Assembly: GCF_002813635.1 (NCBI RefSeq)
Contig: NZ_CP016382.1
Location: 1,709,001-1,773,000, forward strand
Direction: 5' to 3'
From: Spiribacter roseus
GTDB taxonomy: Bacteria > Pseudomonadota > Gammaproteobacteria > Nitrococcales > Nitrococcaceae
Length of the DNA: 64,000 bases
Shown here: positions 9,796 to 17,337 of the stretch, piece by piece
Numbering within the stretch: the stretch's first letter is position 1
How the letters are laid out: each line of letters opens with the position of its first letter
The notes under the pieces: model-generated
What the model saw: only the letters and a program-made list of their open reading frames with translations
Database searches by the model: none
What the model was told of the DNA's origin: nothing
Translations under genes and position numbers: made by a program

Positions 9796-10962
9796 CTACA
9801 GTTCGCCGTAGGAGTGCAGTCCCGAGAGGAACATGTTGACCCCCAGAAAGGCGAAGGTGGTGACGAACAGGCCGATCACCGCCCACCAGGCCATGGGCGT
9901 GCCGCGCAGGCCCTTGGTATAGCGCAGATGCAGCCAGGCCGCGTAGTTGAGCCAGACGATCAGCGCCCAGGTCTCCTTGGGGTCCCACGACCAGTAGGCG
10001 CCCCAGGCCTCGGCCGCCCACAGGGCGCCAAGGATGGTGGCCACCGTGAAAAACGCGAAGCCCAGGGCGATGCTGCGATAGCTGACATCGTCGATCTGCT
10101 TGAGGGTGGGCAGCCGGTCGGCCCATTTGCTGTCGTCGGGCACCCGTGCGCGGATCAGATACGCCACACCCAGCATCGCGGCGATGGCAAAGCAGCCATA
10201 GCCGATGAAGTTGGTGGGCACGTGGATCTTCATCCAGTAGCTTTTCAGGGCCGGGACCAGCGGTTCGATCTGCGAGGCGCCCCGGTCAAAGTGGTACCAG
10301 AGCAGGAAACCCACCGAGGCGGTGATCACCAGCAGCACGAAAAACCCCATGGAATAGGTCTGCTGGGCCTTTTCGTAGTAGAGGTAGATCAGCGCGGTGA
10401 TGACCGCGAACAGCACGAACACCTCGTAGAGGTTGCTGACCGGGATATAGCCGATGCCCCCGGCGAACAGATGGGTCTCGTGCCAGCGCACCAGCAGGCC
10501 CACCAGCCCGGCGCCGGCGCCGAACCAGGTCAGCGTCGAGGCCACCTGGCCGGTGAAGCGGTGGCCGGTAAATAGCGAGACGCCATAGACCAGCGTCGCG
10601 GCCGGGAACAGCGCGCTCATCCACATGATCGCGGACTGGCTGGAGAGCAGGTACTGCAGGAAGAAATCCGTCTGTGCGGCCCCCAGCGCCGGGTAGCGCA
10701 TGACCGCGAACAGGCTCAGCAGGCAGACCGCGGCCATGTAGATCTTTGACTCGCCCCAGTGCCAGCCGATGCCGATCATCACCCCGGCGGTGAACAGGGT
10801 GATCACCACCTCGTAGCCGTTCATGACATCGCCCAGCACCTGGAAGGTGCCGGCGGTGGCCACCGCGACCAGGGCCGCCCAGGCCCAGTCACTCACCGTC
10901 AGCCGCTGCCACAGGGACGGGCGGCGCATCTGACGCATCATTTCTTCGCGGGACGCTACCAT
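9796..10962 (-). CDS. ccsA: System II cytochrome c maturation protein CcsA/ResC
   Basis: Integral membrane haem-handling protein which, with ResB/CcsB, exports haem and ligates it to apocytochromes c at the periplasmic face. The 388 residues hold about eight transmembrane helices and the haem-binding tryptophan-rich WWD motif (EAWGAYWSWDPKETWALIVW), with nearby conserved histidines such as KIHVPTNF. I start at ATG 10962 (MVASREEMM), four bases after the resB stop and with GAGG upstream; upstream in-frame codons lie inside resB. Together with resB this is a complete system II synthetase. Confidence 0.94.
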   Translation of the reverse strand: MVASREEMMRQMRRPSLWQRLTVSDWAWAALVAVATAGTFQVLGDVMNGYEVVITLFTAGVMIGIGWHWGESKIYMAAVCLLSLFAVMRYPALGAAQTDFFLQYLLSSQSAIMWMSALFPAATLVYGVSLFTGHRFTGQVASTLTWFGAGAGLVGLLVRWHETHLFAGGIGYIPVSNLYEVFVLFAVITALIYLYYEKAQQTYSMGFFVLLVITASVGFLLWYHFDRGASQIEPLVPALKSYWMKIHVPTNFIGYGCFAIAAMLGVAYLIRARVPDDSKWADRLPTLKQIDDVSYRSIALGFAFFTVATILGALWAAEAWGAYWSWDPKETWALIVWLNYAAWLHLRYTKGLRGTPMAWWAVIGLFVTTFAFLGVNMFLSGLHSYGEL

Positions 10963-10966
10963 TTCC

Positions 10967-13036
10967 TTAACCTCGATCCGTGTTGTCGCGCTCGAGCTGT
11001 TGGTCGACCGCATCCGCCAGTTCTCCAAACTCCTCCGCAAAGGCCTCGGGCTGGCGCTGATTGGCACCGGCCATCAACAGGTCGGCGCCACCGTTGTCCC
11101 GCGGGGTGATCAGCGCCCAGACGCGCCGATGCGAGACATAAAAAAGCAGAAACACCCCGATCGTGAGCATTGCCGAGCCGGCATAGACCACATTCTTGCC
11201 CGGGGCGCGGGTGATTTGAAGGCCCGTGGCCTGACGGTGATCAAAGTGATCGATACTAAAGATCACCGGCGCGCCATAATCCGAGACGGTGGAGACCGCG
11301 TTCATGGCGTCCTCGAAGAATGCCCGCTGATCGGCATCGGTCTGCACCATCGACAGCTGCACACCCTCGCGCGCGGCGAGCACCTCGCGGTAGATCTCGA
11401 ACAGGGTGCGCTGAAGCACCGAGCGGGAGAACTCCAGCAGCATCTCGGGGCGGTTGGAGCCGGCCACACGGTCTTCGAGCTGCCGGTTGACGGCGCCGAA
11501 GCCCCCGTCCAGCAGGGTCGCGATCATGTCATCGGCGGTGCCCGCCACCCGCGCACCCAGCTCGGGATTGGCCACGCCCATCTGCGCCAGCAGCCCATCG
11601 GCGGCCCGCTGCGAGGCCTGTTTCACGCGGTTGGGATCGTCCAGTGCGGCGTAGAAGTCGAGAAAGGTCTTCATCGAGGCGTCGTCATCGGCCGGCACAT
11701 GCAGGTACTGGAACGGCTGGCCGGGGCTGCTGCGCACGCCGTGCAGGTAGTACCAGCGCCCGTCGATTTCCACCGGCGCCATGTAGGTATGAAACTCGCG
11801 CGCCTGGCCGGCGTCATCGCGCATGGTGTAGTTGAACGACGGCCCGACGTTACGGAACTCGTCCCGGGCGCCGGTCCGCTCGACGGCCCGCGGGTCCGGA
11901 TTGACGTTGAAAAGCTGGAAGTCGTCGATCTCGAGGGTGCGCTCGATGCCGCCCAGCTGCAGGCGCAGGTTCTCGAACACCCGGCCGTCCACGGGCATGG
12001 AGGCGCCGGAGCCATCGAGGATGTGTCCGGTCAGGTCCAGCGCCGTGCCGCCATCGGTGAACGAGGCCTGGTACAGCGTATGGCCGCGGTGGGTGAGCGG
12101 CTCATTGACCGAGATGGTCTTGCGGATGGGGTCTTCGAGGGTGGGGTCATGAATGACCAGGTCACTCTCGTAACTGCTCGGCATGCCATTGGGGTAATGG
12201 TCGATGCGAAAGTCCTCGAGATAGATCTCGAATGGCAGTTCCTGGACGAGATAGCCGTCGCGGACCTGGAGGAAGGTCACGCTGCTGTTGCTGTCCTCGG
12301 GGATGGTGATGTTGCCGCGGAACGAGCCACTCTCGGGCGGCAGCCAGCTCTCACCGGGTACCTGGGAGACCGGCAGATCGCGGGTCTCGATGGCCAGATC
12401 GCCGGTCATCTCGCGGATCTTGAGGTTGATGTTGCCGTCGATCAGCGCGCCCACGGCGATCACCACCACGGCGACGTGGGTAAGCACATAGCCCGCCCGG
12501 GTGGCGCCGCCCTTCATGCCGGCCAGGATCACCGTGTCACCGCGCACCTCACGCCGGGTGCGGTAGCCATAGCCGCGGAACGCCGAATCGGCGAGCATCT
12601 CCGCGGATTCCGCATCGGCCCCGACCTGCCAGCGCCGGTGGTTGGAGAGCGCCAGCAACGAGCGCTCGCGCACATGGGTGCGATAGCGGGTGACTTCGCG
12701 CCAGACGCCGGGAATATGCCGGCTGACACAGACCCCGGTGGACAGGATGAGAAAGCCGAGAATGCCCAGAAACCACCACGCCGAGTAGACGTCGTAGAGG
12801 TTGAGCATGCGGAAGACCTCGAACCAGAACGGCCCGAACTGGATGAGATATTCGTTATAGGGATTGTTCTGGGGCAGGACGGTGCCGATGATCGAAGCGA
12901 TGCTGACCACCACCAGCAGGGTGATCGCGAGGTTCATCGACCCCAGGAATTCGAGCCAAATACTGCCGGAGCGCCGCCTGTCGCGTCGCTTTCCGCCCGT
13001 GGGGCTGTCTGTCACTGTCGCAGCATTCTGAACCAT
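10967..13036 (-). CDS. resB: System II cytochrome c maturation protein ResB/CcsB
   Basis: Partner of CcsA in cytochrome c synthesis. The 689 residues show three N-terminal membrane helices (about 33-50, 85-105 and 180-205), a long periplasmic domain of roughly 430 residues and a final helix (YAGSAMLTIGVFLLFYV), the standard ResB topology. The insert before the last helix has an extra helical stretch compared with short ResB proteins, which is common in proteobacteria. The gene is preceded by the cytochrome c4 gene, a substrate of the pathway, and followed by ccsA. Confidence 0.94.
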   Translation of the reverse strand: MVQNAATVTDSPTGGKRRDRRRSGSIWLEFLGSMNLAITLLVVVSIASIIGTVLPQNNPYNEYLIQFGPFWFEVFRMLNLYDVYSAWWFLGILGFLILSTGVCVSRHIPGVWREVTRYRTHVRERSLLALSNHRRWQVGADAESAEMLADSAFRGYGYRTRREVRGDTVILAGMKGGATRAGYVLTHVAVVVIAVGALIDGNINLKIREMTGDLAIETRDLPVSQVPGESWLPPESGSFRGNITIPEDSNSSVTFLQVRDGYLVQELPFEIYLEDFRIDHYPNGMPSSYESDLVIHDPTLEDPIRKTISVNEPLTHRGHTLYQASFTDGGTALDLTGHILDGSGASMPVDGRVFENLRLQLGGIERTLEIDDFQLFNVNPDPRAVERTGARDEFRNVGPSFNYTMRDDAGQAREFHTYMAPVEIDGRWYYLHGVRSSPGQPFQYLHVPADDDASMKTFLDFYAALDDPNRVKQASQRAADGLLAQMGVANPELGARVAGTADDMIATLLDGGFGAVNRQLEDRVAGSNRPEMLLEFSRSVLQRTLFEIYREVLAAREGVQLSMVQTDADQRAFFEDAMNAVSTVSDYGAPVIFSIDHFDHRQATGLQITRAPGKNVVYAGSAMLTIGVFLLFYVSHRRVWALITPRDNGGADLLMAGANQRQPEAFAEEFGELADAVDQQLERDNTDRG

Positions 13037-13130
13037 TGAATGCCCACCTGTTCGCTATCGACGTTATATTACCGCGCGTCGGCGGTGGGTTTAACCATCC
13101 GCCAACGGGGGATTTGCCATCGGTCGCGAA

Positions 13131-13769
13131 CTATTCGGCTGCAATATCCGTCGGGTAAAGGCCGCGCACGTAGTTGGCGACAGCCTGGATCTCTTCGTCA
13201 TCGAGCTTCGAGGCGATGTCGTTCATCAGCCCGGCCTGACCGTAGCCCGAGCGTTTGCCGGACTGGTACAGCCCGAGCTGCTCGATGGTGTATTCGACCT
13301 TCTGGCCGCTCAGCCGCGGATAGCCGCTGCTGGGCACGCCCATGCCCCCGGGGCCGTGACAGCTGACACAGGCCGGCACGCCCTTCTCGGCGATGCCACC
13401 CATGTAGATGCTGCGCCCGGTGCTGAGCAGCTCTTCGGGGGTCTCACCCAGCTCGGCGTCGAGCTCCGAGAAGTAGACCGCCAGATCGGCCATGGTCTGC
13501 TTGTCGAGCCCGGCCGCCTGGCCCAGCATGATCGCGTTCTCGCGCTCGCCGGATTTGTAGAACTGCAGGTGCTCGTAGATGTAGTCCGCGTGCTGCCCGG
13601 CCAGGTTGGGGTAGTTGGGCACGACACTGTTGCCATCCGCCCCGTGGCAGGCGACACAGGTGGCTGAGGCGGCCTCACCGCGCTTCGGGTCGGCGTTTTC
13701 GAGCTGGGCCTGGGCCGCCCCGCTCATCAGGCACAGCGCGGCGAGCGCGGATAACAACTTAACGATCAT
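13131..13769 (-). CDS. Dihaem cytochrome c4
   Basis: Periplasmic electron carrier, usually between the bc1 complex and a terminal oxidase. The 212-residue precursor has a signal peptide (residues 1-21, ending AQA) and two c-type domains with haem motifs CVACH (38-42) and CVSCH (134-138), each followed by a conserved methionine/proline-rich segment (NYPNLAGQ, GYPRLSGQ). The duplicated domain arrangement is diagnostic for cytochrome c4. It lies beside the ResB/CcsA genes that would attach its haems and diverges from engB. Confidence 0.95.
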   Translation of the reverse strand: MIVKLLSALAALCLMSGAAQAQLENADPKRGEAASATCVACHGADGNSVVPNYPNLAGQHADYIYEHLQFYKSGERENAIMLGQAAGLDKQTMADLAVYFSELDAELGETPEELLSTGRSIYMGGIAEKGVPACVSCHGPGGMGVPSSGYPRLSGQKVEYTIEQLGLYQSGKRSGYGQAGLMNDIASKLDDEEIQAVANYVRGLYPTDIAAE

Positions 13770-13827: not shown

Positions 13828-13849
13828 TTCAGCGGTCTTGGTTGAGACA

Positions 13850-14455
13850 ATGACACTAGATTACCGCCGTGCGCAATTCCTTCTGTCCGCCGCACAGCTC
13901 GAGCAACTGCCCCCCGACCAGGGCGCCGAGGTGGCCTTAGCCGGGCGCTCGAACGCCGGCAAGTCCAGCGCACTCAACGCCATCACCGACCAGAAGCAGC
14001 TCGCCCGGGTCAGCAAGACGCCCGGGCGGACCCAGCAGATCAACGTCTTCCCGCTGACCGACGATGTCACGGCGACGCGCCTCATGGATCTGCCCGGCTA
14101 TGGCTACGCCAAAGCGCCGCCCTCGGTCCGTAACCACTGGCAGCAGGTGCTGCCGCAGTATCTCGAAGGTCGCGAGAGCCTCCGCGGTCTGGTGCTGATC
14201 ATGGATATCCGCCACCCGCTGGGCCCGCTGGATCAGCAGATGCTGGCCTGGTGCGATGCCGCCGGGCTGCCCGCGCATATCCTGCTCAGCAAGGCTGACA
14301 AGCTGCGCCGCGGCGCGGCGGGCAACACCCTGCAGGCGGTCCGACGTGACGCCGGCGGGCACTGCGCCATGGCGACGGTGCAACTGTTCTCGGCACAGAC
14401 GCGCCAGGGTGTGGAGGCCGCCCGTGAGCAGCTCGACCGCTGGTTGCAGACATAA
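13850..14455 (+). CDS. engB: Ribosome biogenesis GTPase EngB/YsxC
   Basis: Essential GTPase acting in assembly of the large ribosomal subunit. G1 [10 protein letters not shown]2 region [12 protein letters not shown]3 [11 protein letters not shown] and G4 SKAD (TKAD in most relatives) are present in a 201-residue protein. I start at ATG 13850 ([11 protein letters not shown]), which aligns with the E. coli start; a TTG four codons upstream is possible. It is separated from polA by a small-RNA gene on the opposite strand, the position occupied by Spot 42 in E. coli. Confidence 0.95.
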
Positions 14456-14577
14456 AAAACCCCGGCATCCAGGGGGGGTGGATGCCGGGGACGTTTGGCC
14501 CGGTCATAGGGGGGTGAATGACCGGGCCAGACTGACCCGCGCTCAAGGGAGGGAGTCGCGGGCCGCGCCGGGCACTG
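14451..14577 (-). ncRNA. Probable small regulatory RNA with three C-rich hairpin loops (sX13-like)
   Basis: Read on the minus strand downstream of polA, the DNA encodes three consecutive hairpins. The first is CCCGCG-A-CTC with loop CCTCCCTT (14536-14562). The second has a perfect 12-bp stem TGGCCCGGTCAT with loop TCACCCCCCT (14496-14529). The third has a perfect 11-bp stem CCCCGGCATCC with loop ACCCCCCCT (14460-14490) and runs directly into TTTTTT, an intrinsic terminator. A TATAAG -10 lies just upstream, predicting a transcript of about 120-125 bases. C-rich loops in a terminator-ended RNA downstream of polA match the Xanthomonas sX13 RNA in design, and Spot 42 and ErsA also lie between polA and engB. 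The loops would pair with G-rich ribosome-binding sites. Ends are estimates. Confidence 0.8.
14453..14490 (-). terminator. Intrinsic terminator (3' end of the small RNA and of polA)
   Basis: An 11-bp perfect stem (14480-14490 with 14460-14470) is followed on the minus strand by six T residues. On the plus strand no T-run follows, so it does not serve engB well. Confidence 0.85.
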
Positions 14578-14582
14578 ACGCA

Positions 14583-14611
14583 CTTATAATGACAGCGCCG
14601 GTCACGGCGAA
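14583..14611 (-). promoter_or_regulatory. Candidate promoter of the C-rich small RNA
   Basis: On the minus strand TATAAG (14583-14588) matches the -10 consensus at 5 of 6 positions. TTCGCC (14606-14611) lies 17 bases upstream as a weak -35. The promoter starts in the spacer after the polA stop (14614-14616), so the RNA could be made independently of polA. Confidence 0.55.
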
Positions 14612-14613
14612 GT

Positions 14614-17337
14614 TCAGTGCGCGGTGTCCCAGTCGTCGCCGACTCCGACCTCCACCTCCAGCGCCACGTCGAGATCCGCCGCATCGGCCATGAAACCGCG
14701 GATCCGCTCGCCGATCGCGGCTTCCTCGCCCGCCGGCACTTCCAGCACCAGCTCGTCGTGAACCTGCATGACCAGCGTCGCGTCGGGCTGCTCGCGGGTG
14801 ATCCAGTCGTCCACCGCAATCATGGCGCGCTTGATGATGTCGGCGGCCGTCCCCTGCATGGGGGCGTTGATGGCGGTGCGCTCGGCATACTGGCGGCGCT
14901 GGTTGTTGCGGCTGTTGATCTCGGGCAGGTAGAGCCGCCGGCCATAGACCGTCTCGACATAGCCCTGCTCGTGGGCCCGGGCGCGGGTCGCGTCCATGAA
15001 CGCGCGGACACCCGGGTAGCGCTCGAAATAGCGATCGACATAGCTCTGCGCCTCACCGCGCTCGATGCCCAGCTGGCGGGCGAGCCCCCAGGCCGACATG
15101 CCGTAGATGAGGCCAAAGTTGATGGCCTTGGCGGCGCGGCGCTGGTCGTCGCTGACCGCCGCGGCCTCACCCCCGAACACCTCGGCGGCGGTGGCGGCAT
15201 GGATATCCAGGCCCTCGGCAAACGCCCGGCGCAGCCCGTCGTCGCCGGACAGATGCGCCATGATGCGCAGCTCGACCTGCGAGTAGTCCGCCGCCATCAG
15301 CCGATAGCCCGGCGTGGGCACGAAGGCGCGACGGATGCGCCGGCCCTCGGGCGTGCGGATGGGGATGTTCTGCAGGTTGGGATCCGACGATGACAGCCGC
15401 CCGGTGGCCGCCACGGCCTGATGGTAGGAGGTATGCACCCGCCCGGTTCCGGGGTTGATCAGCCCGGGCAGCTTTTCGGTGTAGGTCGAGCGCAGCTTCG
15501 AGACGCCGCGATAGTCGAGGATCAGGCGCGGCAGGTCATGACCCTGAGCGGCGAGCTCCTCGAGGACCGACTCGGCGGTGGAGGGGGCGCCCTTGGGGGT
15601 CTTGGCCAGCACCGGCAGGCCCTGGCGCTCGTAGAGGATCTCCTGGATCTGCTTGGGCGAGCCGAGGTTGAAGGGCCCGCCGGCGGCTTCATGGGCCTGC
15701 GACTCGAGCCGCTGCATGGTCTCCGCGAGCTCGCGGCTCTGGGTGGCCAGCAGTCCGGCATCCACCCGCACGCCAGTGCGCTCAATGCGCGAGAGCACCG
15801 GCAGCAGCGGCAGCTCGATGGTCTCGTAGACCGATCGCGGCCCGCTGCGCTCGGCCAGCGACGGCCACAGCGACTCGTGCAGACGGAGGCTGATGTCGGC
15901 GTCCTCGGCGGCATAATCCACCGCCTGATCCAGGCCGACCTGATCGAAGGTGATCTGCCGGGCGCCCTTGCCGGCCACCGCCTCATAGCCGATGGGCCGA
16001 TAGTTGAGGTATTTCTGCGCCAACGAGTCCATGTCGTGGCGCGCCGCCGTGGCATCCAGGCAGTACGACTCGAGCATGGTGTCGTGGACCACGCCGCGCA
16101 GGGTGATGCCGTGATTGGCGAGCACGCTCATGTCGTATTTGAGGTTCTGCCCCAGCTTGCCGGCCTCCGGGTCCTCGAGCAGCGGTCTGAGCCGCTCAAG
16201 CGTTGCCTCACGATCCAGCTGGCGGGGCTGATCCGGGCCGGTGTGCGCCAGCGGCAGATAGGCCGCCTCGCCGGCGGTCACGGCAAACGACACACCGACG
16301 ATGCGGGCACGCATGTAGTCAAGGCTGTCGGTCTCCAGATCCAGGGCAAAGCAGGGTGCCGCCGCCAGCCGCTCCAGCCACTCGTCAAGGCGGTCCTCAT
16401 CCTGGATGCACTCGTAGTCCGCCTGGGGGTCGGCCGGATCATGCCGGGTGACCGCCGGCGGCGGGTCGTCGCCATCGCCATCGGCTTCGACCTCACGCAG
16501 CCAGGTGTTGAACCCGAGATGGCGGTAACGGCGGGCCAGTTCGTCGCGATCAGGGTCCGCCAGTCGGATGGCGAGTGGCTCAAGCGGCAGATCGACGTCG
16601 CAGTCAATGGTCGCCAGCTGCCGCGAGAGGTCCAGCTCGTCGAGGTGCTCGCGCAGGCTCTCGCCCACCTTGCCGCCGATCTCCCCGGCATGGGCACGGA
16701 TGCCATCGATGGACTGGTACTGGGTCAGCCACTTGGCGGCGGTCTTGGGTCCCACCTTGGGGACGCCCGGGATGTTGTCCGAGGTATCGCCCACCAGGGC
16801 CAGATAATCGATGATCTGCTCGGGCGGCACGCCGAACTTGTCGATGACCGCGTCGCGGTCGAGGGTGGTGTTGGACATGGTGTTGAGCAGGGTGACCGCG
16901 CCGTTGACGAGCTGCGCCATGTCCTTGTCACCGGTGGAGATCAGCAGCGTCAGCCCCTCATCCCGGCCGCGCACGGCAAGGGTGCCGATGACGTCGTCCG
17001 CTTCGACGCCGCCGACTTCGATCAGTGGCAGGCCCATGGCCCGCACCACCGCCTTGAGGGGTTCGAGCTGAGCGGCCAGATCATCCGGCATGGGCGGGCG
17101 GTTGGCCTTGTACTCGGCGAACAGTTCGTCACGGAATGTCCGGCCCGGGGCGTCAAAGACGACCCCCATGTGCACCGGGCGATAGTCCTCGATCAGTCGG
17201 CGCAGCATGCTGATCACCCCATAGACGGCGCCGGTGGGCTCGCCCGCGCTATTGGTCAGCGGCGGCAGGGCGTGATAGGCGCGGTACAGATAGGACGAGC
17301 CGTCCACCAGCAGCAGGCGCTTGTCGGGGTCACTCAT
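14614..17337 (-). CDS. polA: DNA polymerase I
   Basis: Repair and Okazaki-fragment-processing polymerase, 907 residues with all three domains. The N-terminal 5'-3' exonuclease starts LLLVDGSSYLYRAYHAL and contains GVEADDVIGTLA and GDTSDNIPGVPKVGPKTA. The 3'-5' proofreading domain keeps its acidic residues: DLETDSLD, GQNLKYDMSVL and YAAEDADISL. The polymerase motifs are DYSQVELRIMAHLSGD, KAINFGLIYGMS and VMQVHDELVLEVP. The ATG lies 6 bases after the uvrD stop, so uvrD-polA is probably one transcript. Proofreading residues being intact makes it an E. coli-type enzyme. Confidence 0.98.
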   Translation of the reverse strand: MSDPDKRLLLVDGSSYLYRAYHALPPLTNSAGEPTGAVYGVISMLRRLIEDYRPVHMGVVFDAPGRTFRDELFAEYKANRPPMPDDLAAQLEPLKAVVRAMGLPLIEVGGVEADDVIGTLAVRGRDEGLTLLISTGDKDMAQLVNGAVTLLNTMSNTTLDRDAVIDKFGVPPEQIIDYLALVGDTSDNIPGVPKVGPKTAAKWLTQYQSIDGIRAHAGEIGGKVGESLREHLDELDLSRQLATIDCDVDLPLEPLAIRLADPDRDELARRYRHLGFNTWLREVEADGDGDDPPPAVTRHDPADPQADYECIQDEDRLDEWLERLAAAPCFALDLETDSLDYMRARIVGVSFAVTAGEAAYLPLAHTGPDQPRQLDREATLERLRPLLEDPEAGKLGQNLKYDMSVLANHGITLRGVVHDTMLESYCLDATAARHDMDSLAQKYLNYRPIGYEAVAGKGARQITFDQVGLDQAVDYAAEDADISLRLHESLWPSLAERSGPRSVYETIELPLLPVLSRIERTGVRVDAGLLATQSRELAETMQRLESQAHEAAGGPFNLGSPKQIQEILYERQGLPVLAKTPKGAPSTAESVLEELAAQGHDLPRLILDYRGVSKLRSTYTEKLPGLINPGTGRVHTSYHQAVAATGRLSSSDPNLQNIPIRTPEGRRIRRAFVPTPGYRLMAADYSQVELRIMAHLSGDDGLRRAFAEGLDIHAATAAEVFGGEAAAVSDDQRRAAKAINFGLIYGMSAWGLARQLGIERGEAQSYVDRYFERYPGVRAFMDATRARAHEQGYVETVYGRRLYLPEINSRNNQRRQYAERTAINAPMQGTAADIIKRAMIAVDDWITREQPDATLVMQVHDELVLEVPAGEEAAIGERIRGFMADAADLDVALEVEVGVGDDWDTAH

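What the first reader, a model, noticed from the sequence alone, without database searches (positions are those of the whole stretch)
14451..14611. Three-hairpin, C-rich-loop small RNA downstream of polA
On the minus strand three stable hairpins follow one another, with loops CCTCCCTT, TCACCCCCCT and ACCCCCCCT; the last is an intrinsic terminator. A TATAAG -10 starts it just after polA. Loops of this type are anti-Shine-Dalgarno-like and characterise sX13 of Xanthomonas; Spot 42 and ErsA also sit in the polA-engB gap. The combination suggests a global post-transcriptional regulator in this lineage. Stems and loops are seen directly; the regulatory role is inference.
Basis: partly seen in the sequence, partly recalled or inferred. 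Interest (0 to 1): 0.7.

Follow-up and report, generated by a model that had tools for sequence, protein, structure and literature searches.

The report
Envelope-stress small RNA beside polA
Next to the DNA polymerase I gene lies a small RNA gene with four cytosine-rich hairpin loops that looks switched on by cell-envelope stress and built to cover ribosome-binding sites; it seems to belong to a family found in many Gammaproteobacteria that ties together RNAs so far studied apart.

Summary
On the minus strand a ~130-nt RNA gene (about 14583-14454) lies between polA and engB and ends in an intrinsic terminator. TATAAG is not conserved (2 of 22 relatives). The conserved promoter motif is of sigma-E (ECF) type, GAACTT-N17-TCATTA, its -35 starting inside the polA stop codon (21 of 22); rpoE's own leader here has GAACTT-N16-TCATTG. 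All 22 relatives in the taxonomic family lie just downstream of polA; stems covary (17 of 30 pairs, slid controls 2-7). Model R2 matches 186 of 369 sampled genomes of the class. In 40 further hits, 38 have the motif upstream (controls 8 of 231) and 32 lie beside polA or engB. Without sX13 or ErsA in training, R2 finds sX13 clearly and ErsA weakly, but as top hit in 10 of 10 genomes examined. Best reading: a sigma-E-induced RNA whose C-rich loops pair with G-rich ribosome-binding sites. Transcription and targets are not shown. It is a relative of sX13, below Rfam's cut-off; the sigma-E link and the unification are the new part.

The parts
14610..14615 (-). -35 element GAACTT of a sigma-E-type promoter; overlaps the polA stop codon TGA
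   Evidence: GAACY-N15-18-TC in 21 of 22 family loci, 48 of 63 wider hits, 38 of 40 further hits
14587..14592 (-). -10 element TCATTA, 17 nt from the -35
   Evidence: same layout in the rpoE leader with a 16-nt spacer
14454..14583 (-). small RNA, about 130 nt (start inferred, within a few bases)
   Evidence: match of models R1 and R2, folds in 22 relatives
   Evidence: 22 of 22 paired; 4 of 5 pairs never vary
14534..14564 (-). hairpin H2, loop with CUCCCUCCCUU
   Evidence: 5 of 8 pairs change on both sides
14496..14529 (-). hairpin H3, loop with CCCCCC
   Evidence: 5 of 8 pairs change on both sides
14460..14490 (-). hairpin H4, intrinsic terminator, loop with CCCCCCC
14454..14459 (-). terminator T tail
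14614..17337 (-). polA, upstream neighbour on the same strand
   Evidence: reading frame; used as query
13838..14455 (+). engB, convergent neighbour
   Evidence: reading frame; found convergent in 21 of 22 relatives

Best explanation
A stand-alone, trans-acting small RNA of the envelope-stress response. When RpoE (sigma-E) is set free, polymerase starts about 14585-14583, just behind polA, and stops at the terminator beside engB. The ~130-nt RNA folds into four hairpins whose C-rich loops, above all CUCCCUCCCUU in H2 and the C runs in H3 and H4, pair with G-rich Shine-Dalgarno or start regions of several mRNAs and mostly lower their translation. Shown: structure, covariation, place, conserved sigma-E-type motif, its likeness to the rpoE leader, presence of rpoE and hfq. 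Inferred: transcription, dependence on RpoE, start site, targets, direction of regulation.
For: z -7.9 fold. 22 of 22 family relatives directly downstream of polA. Covariation 17 of 30 pairs, slid controls 2-7. Motif in 21 of 22, 48 of 63 (shuffles mean 1.9, at most 6; flanking windows 13 of 373), 38 of 40 (8 of 231). One rpoE, with the same motif in its leader; 18 of 25 rpoE-type loci examined in the family carry one. hfq present. sX13 acts through C-rich loops on G-rich motifs near start codons without Hfq (PMC3771888, abstract and passages); ErsA is strictly sigma-22 dependent (PMC7565897, passages).
Against: No transcript data. Two of three true sX13 loci lack the motif as I wrote it. anti-hemB (ncS04), which R2 also matches, showed no significant change in seven conditions in B. 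cenocepacia (PMC5688073, Table 2 passage), and 5 of 10 such loci lack the motif. Target search gave only a list that ordinary Shine-Dalgarno use can explain. G002 and G007 of the family have no convincing copy.
Confidence: 0.72

Rival explanations
1. The same C-loop RNA, but made from a housekeeping (sigma-70) promoter such as the reader's TATAAG, or processed from the end of polA mRNA, and not under sigma-E.
For: TATAAG lies 5-6 nt before the model start; the RNA follows polA on the same strand.
Against: TATAAG in 2 of 22 relatives; no sigma-70 pair by scan; the sigma-E-type motif holds even where polA is not found in the stretch.
Confidence: 0.15
2. It acts on the ribosome as a whole, as an anti-Shine-Dalgarno mimic or through 30S, rather than on chosen mRNAs.
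For: Several C-rich loops; H2 resembles the 16S anti-Shine-Dalgarno end (recalled). ErsA shifts to fractions where 30S sediments during phage infection (PMC8545117, passages).
Against: sX13 loop mutations affect particular targets that need G-rich motifs (PMC3771888, passages).
Confidence: 0.06
3. Only a strong polA terminator region with chance extra hairpins; no regulatory RNA.
For: It does end in a terminator; no transcript has been seen.
Against: Covariation in all stems taken together, near-constant H1 and loops, promoter motif, copies away from polA.
Confidence: 0.03

Closest known systems
sX13 (Rfam RF02232), Xanthomonadaceae
   Same: Downstream of polA; stable stem-loops with C-rich loops ending in a terminator; end-to-end match to the Rfam model and in reverse.
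   Different: Window RNA 42.4 bits, cut-off 50; firm fourth hairpin H1; clearer sigma-E-type promoter. The paper says sX13 is found only in Xanthomonadaceae.
ErsA (Rfam Pseudomon-1, RF01719), Pseudomonas
   Same: Same polA/engB place, sigma-E-type promoter motif, C-rich loops.
   Different: 29.3 bits, cut-off 50; R2 scores ErsA weakly (E 8.6e-5 to 0.11).
anti-hemB (Rfam RF02837)
   Same: R2 hits of this type pass the Rfam cut-off, 10 of 10 picked loci; shared H2 sequence CCCGCUU..CCUCCCUGAGCGGG.
   Different: Window scores 24.3, cut-off 49.5; 4 of the 10 (f108) have neither polA nor engB nearby and no motif.
Spot 42
   Same: polA neighbourhood (PMC3771888, passage).
   Different: Not among 18 relaxed Rfam matches; R2 silent in six enterobacterial or Vibrio-type loci.
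MicA, RybB, MicL and LhrC (recalled)
   Same: Envelope-stress-induced repressor RNAs; LhrC has repeated CU-rich loops and several copies (all recalled).
   Different: None is among the relaxed Rfam matches; not tested further.

Membership tests
sX13 (RF02232) | Rfam score of 50 bits or more | tested here: not met
   Window 42.4 bits; 1 of 20 family loci scanned, L013, reaches 50.2
sX13 (RF02232) | Lies downstream of polA | tested here: met
   Window and 22 of 22 family loci
sX13 (RF02232) | Three stem-loops with C-rich loops | tested here: met
   H2-H4, plus H1
sX13 (RF02232) | Represses targets through C-rich loops, Hfq-independent | not testable with these tools
   Known for sX13 from PMC3771888 (abstract and passages)
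ErsA / Pseudomon-1 (RF01719) | Rfam score of 50 bits or more | tested here: not met
   29.3 bits
ErsA / Pseudomon-1 (RF01719) | Sigma-22/sigma-E-type promoter | tested here: met
   Motif only; no expression data
ErsA / Pseudomon-1 (RF01719) | Common descent with the window RNA | tested here: inconclusive
   ErsA is R2's top hit in 10 of 10 genomes examined, but E 8.6e-5 to 0.11; R1 did not reach E 0.01 on L135
anti-hemB (RF02837) | Rfam score of 49.5 bits or more | tested here: not met
   24.3 bits
Spot 42 | Sequence and structure match | tested here: not met
Class-wide family defined here (R2) | R2 match, polA or engB beside it, GAACY-N15-18-TC upstream | tested here: met
   Window: 99.1 bits (the window sequence is a training row as L001)

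The most novel reading that the evidence does not exclude
One ancestral, sigma-E-driven C-loop small RNA of the polA/engB locus runs through the class Gammaproteobacteria and is a shared translational arm of the envelope-stress response; sX13, ErsA and anti-hemB are its lineage versions, treated apart so far, and some lineages have multiplied it to 2-4 copies (18 of 186 genomes with a hit, counted).
Probability: 0.58. Interest if true: 0.75.

Novelty: new member of a known kind. Interest (0 to 1): 0.62.

Why it matters
Enteric bacteria use MicA, RybB and MicL as the RNA arm of sigma-E (recalled); I know of no counterpart in most other Gammaproteobacteria. If this family is it, one RNA type links envelope stress to translation over a large part of the class (R2 matches 186 of 369 sampled genomes), and sX13 and ErsA become comparable versions of one gene. 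It would also answer the question put in the sX13 paper, whether the polA locus of other bacteria encodes such RNAs (PMC3771888, section 23 passage).

Tried and rejected
Sigma-70 promoter: not the conserved one. Spot 42 kinship: no match. REP-like repeat: R1 and R2 give one match in this genome. CsrA sponge: no GGA in the loops. Cis-acting leader: the next gene, engB, is convergent. Small reading frames across the region are listed mechanically and were not pursued.

R2 hits outside the class: six in the 398-genome phylum sample (how many of the 398 lie outside the class is not told); none has the motif, polA or engB in the stretch; taken as chance or look-alikes. Rfam sX13 and Pseudomon-1 searches over the same 369 genomes gave 17 and 26 genomes at E<=0.01, but only 3 and 1 over the cut-off; several of the weak ones lack polA, engB and motif.

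Targets: GGGAGGG-N2-10-ATG gives 35 sites in the genome against 3 for the reversed pattern, which ordinary Shine-Dalgarno use can explain. Of 30 fetched, 19 open a frame of 50 aa or more; 10 of the 19 scanned are PEP carboxylase, a sigma-70-type factor (rpoH by place), SCO1/SenC, an ABC ATPase, a PHB regulator, a PNP oxidase, cytidylate kinase, a PrpR-type activator, a glycosyl transferase 4 protein and a cyclopropane synthase. The rpoH GGGAGGG is in 6 of 22 relatives (read). Duplex energy of the H2 loop with the rpoE leader is -13.0 and with the hfq leader -9.0 kcal/mol. I name no target.

Full report
What is there. The minus strand between polA (ends 14614) and engB (plus strand, ends 14455) holds a compact RNA gene. 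Folded from the likely start, the 130-nt RNA (14583-14454) has four hairpins: H1 14581-14565 with loop AGUGCCC, H2 14564-14534 with CUCCCUCCCUU in its loop, H3 14529-14496 with a six-C run, and the terminator H4 14490-14460 with a seven-C run and a T tail.

Relatives in the same taxonomic family. The DNA query matches 21 of 23 genomes. All 22 loci lie directly downstream of polA; engB is convergent in 21 of 22 (in L021 it was not found in the stretch held). G016 gives two loci, each with its own polA end, probably a mixed assembly. G002 and G007 have no convincing copy. On a MAFFT alignment of the 22, H1 and the loops are the most constant parts, while stems H2-H4 change in step: 97.4% of 658 cells paired and 17 of 30 pairs with changes on both sides; slid controls give 29-48% and 2-7.

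Promoter. TATAAG occurs in 2 of 22. GAACY-N15-18-TC occurs in 21 of 22; L011 has AAACT. In the window it is GAACTT (14615-14610), 17 nt, TCATTA (14592-14587), the -35 overlapping the polA stop codon. GAACTT-N15-18-TCAT occurs once in 64 kb, 0.09 expected; 7 of 100 shuffles had at least one. This layout is that of RpoE-type promoters (recalled). The genome has one rpoE, whose leader carries GAACTT-N16-TCATTG. Of 25 rpoE-type loci that I examined in the family (30 were fetched; some of the 25 are second paralogues) 18 carry such a motif under a slightly looser pattern.

Reach. Model R1, built only from the 22, matches 72 of 369 sampled genomes of the class at E<=0.01 and 19 of 80 named polA loci at E<=0.01, each downstream of polA on the same strand. 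Of the 30 loci fetched, 26 have polA or engB in the stretch. R2 was built from 56 R1 matches aligned to R1; no sX13 or ErsA rows went in, but at least four rows (L113, L115, L119, L124) pass the Rfam anti-hemB cut-off, so anti-hemB is not held out. R2 matches 186 of 369 genomes at E<=0.001. Of 40 further R2 hits, none from a G-handle genome that gave a training row, 38 have the motif upstream against 8 of 231 control windows, and 32 lie next to polA or engB. For 63 hits (68 less 5 duplicates; four are sX13-type) the motif count is 48; shuffles average 1.9 and reach 6, flanking windows 13 of 373. On the R2 alignment 27 of 30 pairs change on both sides, but 2 of 500 shuffles reach that number and the alignment was fitted to the structure; the covariation score, 0.58 against 0.17 shuffled and at most 0.10 slid, is the better figure. 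In a phylum-wide sample R2 matches 42 of 398 genomes, 36 within the class; the other six lack motif and neighbours.

Relation to known RNAs. Rfam finds nothing in the window at its cut-offs. Relaxed, the best match is sX13, end to end, 42.4 bits (cut-off 50), E 4.7e-7; ErsA scores 29.3 and anti-hemB 24.3. Other C-rich families (Scr3202, 6C, ar14) also score 34-41 bits, so C-rich loops alone earn points; the case rests on order of hairpins, place and promoter too. One of 20 family loci scanned passes the sX13 cut-off. In reverse, R1 finds three true sX13 loci at 38-40 bits and R2 at 48-50, and these are R2's only matches in those genomes. Two of these three lack the motif as I wrote it, so sigma-E control may have been lost or changed there. 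Seven genomes of family f161 (Pseudomonadaceae, inferred from the Rfam ErsA match of G184) matched by R2 give exactly ErsA, 81-85% identical to G184's, next to polA and engB and with the motif. In three more below the threshold ErsA is still the top hit, E 0.005-0.11: 10 of 10 examined; other f161 genomes may be among the unlisted ones. R1 did not reach E 0.01 on ErsA. Ten loci that I picked from the R2 hits pass the anti-hemB cut-off, 10 of 10, but only 5 of them carry the motif, and the four of family f108 have neither polA nor engB near. Of 40 class loci scanned at Rfam cut-offs, 6 are recognised at the RNA, all as anti-hemB. Spot 42 does not match.

Copies. 18 of 186 genomes have two to four matches (counted from the table; some lie on different contigs). 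G193 and G300 have four in a row. Three of the four G193 copies carry the strict motif, and the three copies whose full sequence I printed each end in a terminator-like hairpin.

How it works. sX13 represses through C-rich loops on G-rich motifs near start codons, without Hfq (PMC3771888, abstract and passages). ErsA is strictly sigma-22 dependent (PMC7565897, passages); [quoted passage not shown] The window RNA joins the promoter of the one to the loops of the other, so I read it as a sigma-E-induced RNA acting on ribosome-binding sites. Against a simple stress story, anti-hemB (ncS04) changed in none of seven conditions in B. cenocepacia (PMC5688073, Table 2 passage). Targets were not resolved.

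Novelty. In the held library no paper contains both 'sX13' and 'ErsA'. One holds sX13 and rpoE, once each (listing). A search around ErsA, polA, sigma22 and Gammaproteobacteria gave five papers, none on a class-wide family by its title (listing; passages of three of them read). Seven papers hold Spiribacter and 'small RNA' (listing); the one I opened reports a different Spiribacter RNA motif (PMC8632094, passages). The library lacks most subscription journals; the first ErsA paper was not seen. So the RNA itself is a new member of a known kind; the class-wide sigma-E family is the new claim. The organism is probably Spiribacter-like (1.93 Mb in one contig; recalled, not tested).

Noticed in passing
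L110 (G193) 1501-2250 and L171 (G300) 1502-2432: Four tandem copies of the RNA in each of two genomes of one genus; three of the four G193 copies have their own sigma-E-type motif.
   Followed up: partly
L319, L320, L330, L331 (family f108): anti-hemB-type RNAs with the H2 hairpin CCCGCUUU..CCUCCCUGAGCGGG but without polA, engB or the motif nearby.
   Followed up: partly
L310 1501-1628 and L327 (outside the class, f219): Three C-rich-loop hairpins in a row (loops with ACCCCCUCAAG, UCCCCUCAA, CAUCCCCCCAA in L310), not at polA or engB; not named by Rfam at that place.
   Followed up: no
L338, L342, L343, L345, L347, L349 (rpoH leaders): GGGAGGG before rpoH, complementary to the H2 loop, in 6 of 22 relatives printed.
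   Followed up: partly
L092 5917-6043 (record titled Pantoea sp. Cy-639): The RNA here has the ErsA sequence of the f161 genomes, so the record may be mislabelled; inferred by eye.
   Followed up: no
L117 956-1396 and L131 1010-1443: Rfam cspA thermoregulator matches barely over the cut-off (79.9 and 79.4 against 78), close upstream of the RNA.
   Followed up: no
window 9796-13769, minus strand: Frames that look like cytochrome c biogenesis genes and a two-haem cytochrome c lie beyond engB (by eye from the translations; no search).
   Followed up: no
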